64,000 bases of DNA from assembly GCF_003205495.1 (NCBI RefSeq), contig NZ_QJRX01000001.1, forward strand, positions 1-64,000, read 5' to 3'. The stretch's first letter is position 1; the number at the start of each line of letters is the position of its first letter. The notes below the pieces were generated by a model. The model was not told the origin of the DNA. It did not search any database and worked only from the letters and a program-made list of their open reading frames with translations. Below, one piece after another: positions 8,324-57,818 of the stretch. The position numbers were made by a program, and so were the translations under genes. Origin of the DNA: Aquipseudomonas alcaligenes (lineage in GTDB: Bacteria; Pseudomonadota; Gammaproteobacteria; Pseudomonadales; Pseudomonadaceae).

Positions 8324-9130
8324 TTGAGCGGCTACGCCCTTGTCACCGGCGCCTCCAGCGGCCTCGGCCTGGCCCTGGCCGAGGCACTGGCCCGGCGCGG
8401 GCACAACCTGATCCTGGTGGCGCGCCAGCGCGATGCGCTGGAGAGCATCGCCTGCGAGCTGAGCCAGCGCTTCGGCATCGAGGCGCTGCTGCGCGTCTGC
8501 GACCTGACCGAGCCGCTGCAGCTCACCGGCCTGATCCAGGAGCTGGAACAGGGTGAGCGACACATCGACCTGCTGGTGAACAACGCCGGCATCGGCAGCG
8601 CCGGGCTGTTCGTCGAGCAGGACTGGGGCCACGAACAGGACCTGATCGAGCTCAACATGCTGGCGCTGGCCCGCCTGTGCCACGCCCTGGGTGCGGACAT
8701 GAAGCGCCGCGGCGGCGGGCAGATCCTCAACGTCGCCTCGCTGGCCGCCTTCCAGCCGGGGCCGCTGATGAGCAACTACTTCGCCAGCAAGGCCTATGTG
8801 CTGCACCTCTCCGAGGCGCTGCGCAGCGAGCTGGCGCCCTTCGGCGTGAAGGTCTCGGTGCTCTGCCCGGGGCCGGTAGCCACCGCCTTCTTCCGCCGCG
8901 CCCGCCTGCGCAGCGAGGGCCTGCAGCGCCGCCAGCTGCTGGAGAGCCCGGAGCGGATCGCGCAGATCGCCGTGCAGGGCCTGCAGCGCAACCGCGCCAT
9001 CATCATCCCCGGCTGGCGCCACCGCCTGCTGCCGCAGCTGCTGCGCCTGACGCCGCGCGCACTGGTACGGCGCATCGCCATGCGCATGGTGCGCCCGCTG
9101 CTGCCACGCGAGGGCGCCGAGGAGACCTAG
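8324..9130 (+). CDS. short-chain dehydrogenase/reductase
   Basis: This 268-aa NAD(P)-dependent SDR has the cofactor motif TGASSGLG at 8-15, NNAG at 86-89, and the catalytic triad S139, Y152, K156 (YFASK). The substrate is unknown. The start is TTG at 8324: a GAGGAG Shine-Dalgarno (8312-8317) lies 6 nt upstream, and the codons that follow begin the Rossmann strand directly. It begins 4 nt after the DUF805 gene, so the two form an operon. Its stop codon overlaps the end of the convergent AAA+ gene by 4 nt. Confidence 0.9.
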   Translation: MSGYALVTGASSGLGLALAEALARRGHNLILVARQRDALESIACELSQRFGIEALLRVCDLTEPLQLTGLIQELEQGERHIDLLVNNAGIGSAGLFVEQDWGHEQDLIELNMLALARLCHALGADMKRRGGGQILNVASLAAFQPGPLMSNYFASKAYVLHLSEALRSELAPFGVKVSVLCPGPVATAFFRRARLRSEGLQRRQLLESPERIAQIAVQGLQRNRAIIIPGWRHRLLPQLLRLTPRALVRRIAMRMVRPLLPREGAEET

Positions 9131-10608
9131 CCGGCATCCACCGTGCGCCCGGCGGCCCAGGCGCGCAGCGCCGTGAGGCGCTCGGCCATCACCACCGACA
9201 GCGGCGCCGTGCCCTGGATGTTGCTCAGCAGCAATGCCTGGTCCACCGCCTGCTGGCGGGCCTGGGCGGCATACAGGGCGCTGACCACCACCTGTTCGAT
9301 CTCCGCGCCGGAGAAGCCCTCGCAGGCTGCCGCCAGCGCCGCCAGATCGAACTGTGCCGGGTCCAGCTCGCGACGGCGCAGGTGGATGGCGAAGATCTCC
9401 GCGCGCACCTCGGCATCCGGCAGGTCGACGAAGAACAGCTCGTCGAAGCGGCCCTTGCGCACCAGTTCCGGCGGCAGGCGGTCGATGGCGTTGGCGGTGG
9501 CGACCATGAACACCGGCGCCTTGCGCTCGGCCATCCAGGTCAGCAGGGTACCGAGCACGCGCTGGCTGACACCGTCGTCGTTACTGCCGGTGGCCAGGCC
9601 CTTCTCGATCTCGTCCATCCACAGCACGCAGGGCGCCATCTGCTCGGCCATCTTCAGCGCCTCGCGCAGGTTGCGCTCGGTCTCGCCGAAGAACTTGTTG
9701 TACAGGCTGGCGAAGTCCAGGCGCAGCAGCGGCAGGCCCCAGAGACCGGCCACCGCCTTGGCCGCCAGGCTCTTGCCACCGCCCTGCACGCCGACCAGCA
9801 GCACACCGCGCGGCATGTCGGTGCCCTTGCCGCTGGCGAAGATCTCCTGACGCTCGCCCAGCCAGCGCTTCAGGTTGACCAGGCCGCCGACCTCGGCGAA
9901 GCGCGCGGTGTCATGCTCGAAGCTCAGCACGCCCTCCAGGTCGAGCAGCTGGAACTTGGCCTTGTTCAGTTCCGGCAGATCTTCCTGGGTGATGGCGCCG
10001 TCGTCGCAGATCAGGTTGCGCGCCAGCGCCCGCGCCTCGGCGTGGCTCATGCCGCGCAGGTTCTTCACCACCTGCTGCAGGGTGCGGTTGTCGGTGCGCA
10101 CCCGCGCACCGCGGTTGCGCTCGCTCCAACGCGTGGCCTCGTCGCGGACGATGGTCAGCAGCTCCTCCTCGGTCGGCAGCGCCAGGCTGAAGCGCGCGGC
10201 GTAGCGCTGCACCTCGACCGGCAGCTTGAGGGCATGCGACACCAGCACCAGGGTCGGCTTGTGCGCCACCTCGCTCATGGCGATTTCCTTGAGCAGGCGC
10301 ACCAGCTTGGGGTTGTCGACCAGGAACGGATGCAGGTCGCACATCACGTAGAGATTGGGCGTCGGGTCGGCCTTGATCAGGCGCAGCGCCTGCTCCGGCT
10401 CGCGGCTGTCCAGCTCGCCCACCGGCTCGCCGCCGAAGCCCAGGCGCTGCAGGCCCTCGGTCACCGCCCAGGTGTAGATGCCGAGGCCGCGCTTGATCGC
10501 CAGCGAGGTCAGGGTCTCCAGCACCCGCGGCTCGTCCCAGGACTCGATCACCACCAGTTTGACACGGGACTCCAGCACCAGCCCCAGATCGTGTACGTCG
10601 TTCTTCAC
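9127..10608 (-). CDS. Ycf46-like AAA+ ATPase
   Basis: This 493-aa ATPase has an N-terminal domain (about 1-230) typical of the Ycf46 family, then an AAA+ module with Walker A GVQGGGKS (273-280), Walker B VLWMDEIE (328-335), the sensor 1 region VATANAID and the arginine-rich VRKGRFDELFFVDLP segment. Proteins of this family are cytoplasmic; their function is poorly defined, and no protease domain is present. The first MKNDVHDLGL start is supported by family length. Its 3' end overlaps the SDR gene by 4 nt on the opposite strand, so there is no room for a terminator between them. Confidence 0.87.
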   Translation of the reverse strand: MKNDVHDLGLVLESRVKLVVIESWDEPRVLETLTSLAIKRGLGIYTWAVTEGLQRLGFGGEPVGELDSREPEQALRLIKADPTPNLYVMCDLHPFLVDNPKLVRLLKEIAMSEVAHKPTLVLVSHALKLPVEVQRYAARFSLALPTEEELLTIVRDEATRWSERNRGARVRTDNRTLQQVVKNLRGMSHAEARALARNLICDDGAITQEDLPELNKAKFQLLDLEGVLSFEHDTARFAEVGGLVNLKRWLGERQEIFASGKGTDMPRGVLLVGVQGGGKSLAAKAVAGLWGLPLLRLDFASLYNKFFGETERNLREALKMAEQMAPCVLWMDEIEKGLATGSNDDGVSQRVLGTLLTWMAERKAPVFMVATANAIDRLPPELVRKGRFDELFFVDLPDAEVRAEIFAIHLRRRELDPAQFDLAALAAACEGFSGAEIEQVVVSALYAAQARQQAVDQALLLSNIQGTAPLSVVMAERLTALRAWAAGRTVDAG

Positions 10609-10628
10609 AGCCTCTCCTTGTGCAGCAT

Positions 10629-10895
10629 TAGGGTCTGTTGCCGTTTCGGCGCAAGCCGCGTTGCCGCGAAAAATCGCGCCAGGCTAGGCGCGGGACGCAG
10701 GGAATGGTGATCCCTTGCCAAGTTCCGCAACGACGCATGGCGCGATTTTCCGCGCAACCCGTAGGGCCGGGCCAGTTTTTGTGCGGATCGTCGTTACTCG
10801 ACGGCTCATTTGGATGGCCAAACTTCGCGTCTCGCGCCTAGCTCCGCACAAAAACTGGCTCCGTCGCGGTCGCGGCGAAACGGCAACAGACCCTA
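10629..10895. mobile_element. MITE-like element with 21-bp terminal inverted repeats and TA flanks
   Basis: This 324-nt gap between the AAA+ gene and the HIT gene holds a palindromic element. Arms 10628-10648 and 10876-10896 are perfect reverse complements over 21 bp (TTAGGGTCTGTTGCC...). If the bounding TA is a target duplication, the element is GGGTCT...AGACCC, 263 bp. Further nested pairs are seen: 10684-10698 with 10827-10841 (1 mismatch), 10771-10787 with 10843-10859 (17 bp, perfect), and 10661-10681 with 10738-10757 (imperfect). It contains no credible gene. The layout resembles a non-autonomous IS630/Tc1-type MITE, but no transposase is present and copy number is unknown. Confidence 0.75.
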
Positions 10896-10932
10896 AACTC
10901 GCAGCATACCCACCGCCTTCGGAGGAAAGCGC

Positions 10933-57741: not shown

Positions 57742-57818
57742 GGGCCTATAGCTCAGTCGGTTAGAGCAGAGGACTCATAATCCTTTGGTCCACGGTTCGA
57801 GTCCGTGTGGGCCCACCA
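57742..57818 (+). tRNA. tRNA-Ile2 (anticodon CAU, lysidine-modified)
   Basis: A 77-nt cloverleaf with an encoded CCA end: acceptor GGGCCTA with TGGGCCC, D-arm AGCTCAGTCGGTTAGAGCA, anticodon loop CTCATAA with CAT at 57776-57778, and T-loop GGTTCGAGTCC. The GACTCATAATC context matches E. coli ileX, so it is the AUA-reading tRNA-Ile2 whose C34 is changed to lysidine, and not a Met tRNA. It lies 17 nt after rmcA. Confidence 0.9.

What the first reader, a model, noticed from the sequence alone, without database searches (positions are those of the whole stretch)
10629..10895. MITE-like palindromic element with nested inverted repeats
Seen: 21-bp perfect terminal inverted repeats, TA at both outer edges, three further inverted-repeat pairs (one 17 bp and perfect), and no gene. 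Inference: a non-autonomous transposable element of IS630/Tc1 type that now separates the AAA+ gene from the HIT gene and must contain or abut the HIT promoter. I do not recognise a named family.
Basis: partly seen in the sequence, partly recalled or inferred. Interest (0 to 1): 0.6.

Follow-up and report, generated by a model that had tools for sequence, protein, structure and literature searches.

The report
IS5-mobilised MITE with conserved hairpin core
A 263-base "hitch-hiking" DNA element without genes has inserted between two Pseudomonas genes, and while its ends belong to a known type of jumping gene (IS5/ISPa67), its folded two-hairpin interior is conserved across dozens of bacterial genera behind different ends, which is unusual for such elements and suggests that the interior does something.

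Summary
In detail: 10631-10893 is a 263-bp palindromic element with 18-bp perfect terminal inverted repeats (TIRs), a TA on each side and three nested inverted repeats; its fold is far beyond chance (z -11). It is a mobile MITE. Related genomes carry dispersed copies, and orthologous AAA+/HIT intergenic regions in three relatives hold a single TA (empty site). The window's own genome holds only this copy, and the partner transposase was not found there, so it is probably immobile now. The surprise is the interior. A ~215-bp core made of two inverted copies of one ~100-nt hairpin keeps its pairing while its stem sequences change (52 of 72 pairs with compensatory changes). A model of one hairpin matches 56 of 369 genomes, in 49 of 272 genera, of the window's class. 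The same core sits behind at least eight kinds of TIR, with TA or TNA duplications. Rfam has no such family. What the core does is unknown; selection for a folded structure that helps the element persist or move is most likely, but palindrome correction could also produce the covariation.

The parts
10631..10893 (.). whole non-autonomous element (MITE), 263 bp
   Evidence: TIR pair, TA on both sides, single-TA empty sites in relatives, dispersed homologues
10629..10630 (.). left copy of the TA target duplication
   Evidence: sequence; single TA at the orthologous site of L154, L155, L176
10894..10895 (.). right copy of the TA target duplication
   Evidence: as above
10631..10648 (+). left terminal inverted repeat GGGTCTGTTGCCGTTTCG
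   Evidence: identical to the TIR of the ISPa67-like IS in L222 and L063
10876..10893 (-). right terminal inverted repeat, perfect inverse of the left
10759..10866 (-). hairpin unit B (about 100 nt, conserved loop with variable paired arms)
   Evidence: covariance model R1 (which includes this sequence), 108 bits; stem arms 10771-10787 / 10843-10859
10659..10765 (+). hairpin unit A, an inverted, diverged copy of unit B
   Evidence: R1 match on the opposite strand, 59.2 bits, E 1.7e-10; stem arms 10665-10684 / 10735-10754
10683..10713 (.). loop part of unit A that is complementary to the loop of unit B at 10812-10842
   Evidence: inverted repeat I2; explained by units A and B being inverted copies of each other
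9127..10608 (-). AAA+ ATPase gene, start codon 22 bp left of the element
   Evidence: PF00004, PF17862
10933..11271 (+). HIT-domain gene, start codon 38 bp right of the element
   Evidence: PF01230

Best explanation
The feature is a MITE: a gene-free element that an IS5-family transposase of the ISPa67 type recognises at the 18-bp ends and moves in trans into TA (preferred CTAG), duplicating the TA. It landed in the short AAA+/HIT intergenic region of this lineage and has no known transposase partner left in this genome. Between the ends it carries a core of two inverted copies of one ~100-nt hairpin unit. The unit has a conserved loop sequence and stem arms whose sequence is free but whose pairing is kept. 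This core is much older and more widespread than its ISPa67 ends and is found behind other IS5-like ends. I think it is a cis-acting folded module kept because it helps the element itself persist or move, rather than because of the genes beside it. Shown: mobility, target, ends, partner family, conserved pairing, distribution, several kinds of ends. Inferred: action in trans, and the function of the core.
For: Copies at E<=0.001 in 28 of 95 searched genomes, all of the same genus, at different places, e.g. at least 8 full-length copies in G001. TIR found in more than 120 contigs (Pseudomonas, Stutzerimonas, Halopseudomonas, Azotobacter), paired at fixed sizes. Of 103 distinct insertions 82 have TA on both sides and 42 read C-TA..TA-G (loci were found by a pattern that includes TA at one end, so only the other end is unbiased). 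Empty sites with one TA: L154, L155, L176. Partner: IS with the same TIR and TA flanks, IS5 family, ISPa67. A second TIR kind (GGGCCTGTTAACACTA) also has its own IS5-family partner (L292, NF033580, 226 bits, 32% identical to the first). Core: 96.4% of cells paired against 84.5% shuffled and 35-43% slid, 52/72 pairs with changes on both sides. Class-wide: 56/369 genomes, 49/272 genera; 98.1% of cells paired against 72.7% shuffled and 33-47% slid. Different TIRs on the same core. No gene-context bias.
Against: Transposition itself was not observed. Zero-arm (~50 bp) derivatives occur at many TA-flanked sites, so arms are either not needed for transposition or were lost after insertion; 23 different centres among 28 favour repeated loss, but this was not proved. 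No IS was found for TIR kinds GGGGGCGTTCTCAATT or GGGTGTGTCATCAATGAATTC. Covariation in a DNA palindrome can arise by template-switch correction without selection. G-U against A-C counts on the arms (35 v 15 cells, 13 v 11 pairs) do not settle whether RNA or DNA is the folded form.
Confidence: 0.87

Rival explanations
1. IS630/Tc1-type MITE: TA target and short TIR, moved by an IS630 transposase.
For: TA duplication and CTAG preference are also found with IS630 (own knowledge); a 102-bp P. syringae MITE is thought to be moved by the IS ISPsy25 (PMC6053426), listed as IS630 in PMC3189936.
Against: The only transposases found between matching TIRs are IS5 family, and the TIR is shared base for base with ISPa67-like elements.
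Confidence: 0.03
2. The covariation of the core is a by-product of DNA palindromes: template switching during replication rewrites one arm from the other, so pairing is kept without any function.
For: Long near-perfect arms, loss of whole arms at the hairpin base leaving 49-58-bp scars, no clear strand bias in wobble pairs.
Against: It does not explain why the unpaired loop sequence (AAGGCGCGAG...GTTTGG...CCAAAT...CGAGCAACGC) is conserved across 49 genera while the arms vary, nor the near-constant length behind different TIRs.
Confidence: 0.25
3. The core is a functional RNA, transcribed with neighbouring genes and cut or bound by a host factor, as is known for Neisseria Correia elements.
For: Very stable fold, conserved internal loops with covarying stems, more G-U than A-C cells on the B-unit strand.
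Against: Both strands carry one unit in each sense; no Rfam family; no preference for tandem, convergent or divergent gene pairs (22:9:6 against background 102:47:34); expression not testable here.
Confidence: 0.25
4. A fixed regulatory palindrome of the AAA+/HIT locus.
For: It lies between divergent starts.
Against: Absent at that place in relatives, which have a single TA; homologues lie elsewhere.
Confidence: 0.02

Closest known systems
ISPa67 (IS5 family insertion sequence)
   Same: identical 18-bp TIR GGGTCTGTTGCCGTTTCG at its outer ends and TA duplication
   Different: ISPa67-like copies are ~853 bp and encode a DDE transposase; beyond the ends the MITE shares no detected sequence with them
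Other bacterial MITEs thought to be moved by IS in trans: MITEPsy1 (IS5/ISPsy2-like ends, P. syringae), MITEPsy3, Correia elements of Neisseria, R0/R2 repeats of P. fluorescens SBW25
   Same: short, gene-free, TIR matching an IS where a partner is known, AT-containing target (PMC3189936, PMC6053426, PMC2718517, PMC10969869)
   Different: their TIR and size as described differ; none of the passages read describes one conserved covarying two-hairpin core behind several kinds of TIR across many genera
TIMEs (Tn3-derived miniature elements, 262 bp, Pseudomonas)
   Same: similar size, conserved stretches in the core, predicted stable folds (PMC4133298)
   Different: 38-bp Tn3-family ends with 5-6 bp duplications; mobilised by Tn3 transposases

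Membership tests
MITE (non-autonomous, IS-mobilised) | short, no transposase, terminal inverted repeats | tested here: met
   263 bp, only short ORFs without family evidence, 18-bp perfect TIR
MITE (non-autonomous, IS-mobilised) | target-site duplication and empty site | tested here: met
   TA both sides; single TA in L154, L155, L176
MITE (non-autonomous, IS-mobilised) | multiple dispersed copies | tested here: met
   many copies in relatives; only one in the window's own genome
MITE (non-autonomous, IS-mobilised) | TIR shared with an autonomous IS | tested here: met
   ISPa67-like, IS5 family
MITE (non-autonomous, IS-mobilised) | moves when the transposase is supplied | not testable with these tools
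   needs a transposition assay
IS630/Tc1-mobilised element | TIR shared with an IS630-family IS | tested here: not met
   matching TIRs enclose IS5-family transposases only
IS5-mobilised element (ISPa67 type) | same TIR and same target duplication as the IS | tested here: met
   18/18 bases at the better-matching end of L222 and L063; TA flanks
Known Rfam RNA family | match at gathering score | tested here: not met
   no match in the element or its relatives; only a tRNA elsewhere in the window

The most novel reading that the evidence does not exclude
The two-hairpin core is an ancient functional nucleic-acid module of the class (probably Gammaproteobacteria) that has been carried by successive IS5-type ends (at least eight kinds, with TA or TNA duplications), so that the conserved unit of the element is its folded interior and the transposon ends are exchangeable.
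Probability: 0.4. Interest if true: 0.8.

Novelty: new variant of a known kind. Interest (0 to 1): 0.6.

Why it matters
MITE interiors are usually regarded as decaying remnants of an IS. Here the interior is the conserved part: the same loop sequence and covarying stems occur in 49 of 272 sampled genera of the class while the transposase-recognised ends differ. That makes it directly testable whether a MITE can carry a selected, transposase-independent folded module, and it gives an annotation handle (a covariance model) for a widespread repeat that has no Rfam family.

Tried and rejected
IS630/Tc1 origin (no such transposase with this TIR). Fixed regulatory palindrome (empty sites). Known RNA (Rfam at gathering and permissive thresholds: only chance hits to eukaryotic miRNA and leader families). 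Literature by TIR sequence: no paper holds it; ISPa67 appears only in lists. IS partners for TIR kinds 2 and 3: only MITE-sized pairs found; IS5_3 transposases in carrier genomes do not have those ends, though one degenerate copy has ISPa67-like ends. Gene-context bias: none with rough ORF calls. Strand test by G-U against A-C counts: inconclusive. Phage records: none; viral contigs: two TIR hits, not followed. I considered a kink-turn reading of the internal loop and dropped it because the bulge lies on the wrong side of the GA pairs (by eye, not computed).

Full report
OBSERVATION. The element is as described. The outer inverted repeat is 10628-10652 / 10872-10896; the perfect part (21 bp) includes T and the TA duplication, leaving an 18-bp TIR, GGGTCTGTTGCCGTTTCG, at 10631-10648 and 10876-10893. 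Three nested inverted repeats lie inside. Folding of the single strand is far from chance (z -11.2 as RNA, -11.5 as DNA, 0/200 shuffles). The fold is a base stem formed by the TIRs, a hairpin B (10759-10866), a very short central hairpin and a hairpin A (10659-10765).

IT INSERTED. Orthologous AAA+/HIT intergenic regions in three related genomes (L154 from G028, L155 from G013, L176 from G014) read ATTAGACTCG, ATTAAACTCG and CTAAACTCG, with one TA, where the window has ATTA-element-TAAACTCG. So the element is an insertion with a 2-bp TA duplication. Without it the divergent start codons are about 60 bp apart in the window; with it the AAA+ start codon lies 22 bp from the element, too little room for a promoter, so AAA+ transcription very probably starts in or beyond the element (inference; no sigma-70 consensus site was found).

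IT IS MOBILE ELSEWHERE. 28 of 95 searched genomes have matches, all within the window's genus, some with many dispersed copies (at least 8 full-length ones in G001). The TIR with TA occurs in more than 120 contigs, named ones being mainly Pseudomonas, Stutzerimonas, Halopseudomonas and Azotobacter. Among 103 distinct insertions paired by TIR, the sizes cluster at ~50 (21) and ~265 bp (49), with smaller classes at 160-205 and 275-330; 82 have TA on both sides and the commonest target is CTAG (42). The window's own genome has only this copy and no related transposase was found (the same query is positive in 5 of the 95 genomes). It is therefore probably a stranded copy.

PARTNER. In L063 the same TIRs, flanked by CTA and TAG, enclose 853 bp with a 249-aa transposase: Pfam DUF4096 and DDE_Tnp_1, NCBIfam IS5 family. 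The close relatives L222 and L223 have TIRs with 15-16 of the first 16 bases matching and TA on both sides. A plasmid copy 97% identical in protein is annotated ISPa67. This replaces the IS630/Tc1 guess.

ANATOMY. Some elements with the ISPa67-type TIR have two arms (263-266 bp), some one arm (~159-205 bp, either B or A), some none (~43-58 bp), and some have inserts in the core (280-330 bp). The zero-arm forms look like deletions at the base of the hairpins of two-arm copies: their centres are joined outer ends and differ from site to site (23 centres in 28 elements). This suggests repeated loss by slippage over an extruded hairpin (inference). TIR kind GGGGGCGTTCTCAATTAG shows the same classes (about 55, 172 and 266-270 bp); TIR kind GGGTGTGTCATCAATGAATTC shows zero-arm and two-arm forms.

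CORE. Forty-five cores aligned give 72 consensus pairs, 52 with changes on both sides. 96.4% of cells form standard pairs, against 84.5% in shuffles and 35-43% when partners are slid. Units A and B are inverted copies of each other: a model of B (R1, built from 33 B units that include the window's) also finds A on the opposite strand (window 59.2 bits; up to 95 bits elsewhere). The complementarity of the two loops (10683-10713 / 10812-10842) follows from this.

DISTRIBUTION. R1 matches 56 of 369 genomes sampled from the window's class, 49 of 272 genera, mostly in several copies, at E down to 8e-20 (at most 10 candidates per genome were scored, so counts of 10 are lower bounds). In 30 class-wide units the loop sequence is conserved while a 16-bp stem is paired in nearly every sequence with three to five pair types at most positions (98.1% of cells against 72.7% shuffled and 33-47% slid). 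The ends differ: GGGTCTGTTGCCGTTTC, GGGGGCGTTCTCAATT, GGGTGTGTCATCAATGAATTC, GGGTGTGTCATCAGCTATTTCC, GGGCCTGTCATCGGTCATTTCC, GGGCGTGTCATTGATCATTACC, GGGCCTGTTAACACTA, GAGCCTATCCRTGAATAAATC, GGGGCTGTTCTCAATG and others. Most show TA duplications; two of three loci of the GAGCCTATCC kind show TTA on both sides (a TNA duplication; L244, L248). For GGGCCTGTTAACACTA an 801-bp IS with a different IS5-family transposase was found (L292). G681 has 63 forward and 63 reverse matches to that end. The kinds share a GRG-YCTGTT-like theme, so slow co-divergence of ends with their IS is an alternative to outright exchange of ends; these were not separated.

MECHANISM. Shown: insertion at TA, mobility of the family, the IS with the same ends, conservation of pairing and loops. 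Inferred: transposition in trans by IS5-family enzymes, and a selected role of the core. No gene-context bias was seen, no phage record holds it, and nothing suggests a link with the AAA+ or HIT genes. I favour a cis-acting module that serves the element (persistence or movement), then an RNA role, then pure palindrome correction; the data do not decide.

LIMITS. Only open-access papers were searched; no paper holds the TIR sequence, ISfinder could not be consulted, and the consensus sequences of the P. fluorescens R families (PMC2718517) were not available, so an earlier description of parts of this family cannot be excluded.

Noticed in passing
L192 (NZ_CP017294.1), 2501-2769: A two-arm copy with the ISPa67-type TIR lies on a conjugative IncP plasmid of a clinical P. 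aeruginosa strain between an acyl-CoA dehydrogenase and a CaiB/BaiF gene, a possible route of spread.
   Followed up: partly
L040:1575-1902, L060:4337-4665, L105:5627-5956: Elements of 328-330 bp carry extra sequence inside an arm loop; in L040 and L060 it contains the same stretch (CCCGCCGGGAGCGGGC or its inverse), perhaps another small repeat inserted into the MITE.
   Followed up: no
L084:1752-2312: Two elements in tandem sharing a single TA junction between them.
   Followed up: no
L090 (Conchiformibius MAG): The ISPa67-type TIR with TA occurs in a MAG labelled Conchiformibius; only one end was detected and the host label was not checked.
   Followed up: no
window 57742-57815: tRNA gene (Rfam RF00005), the only Rfam match in the window.
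   Followed up: no
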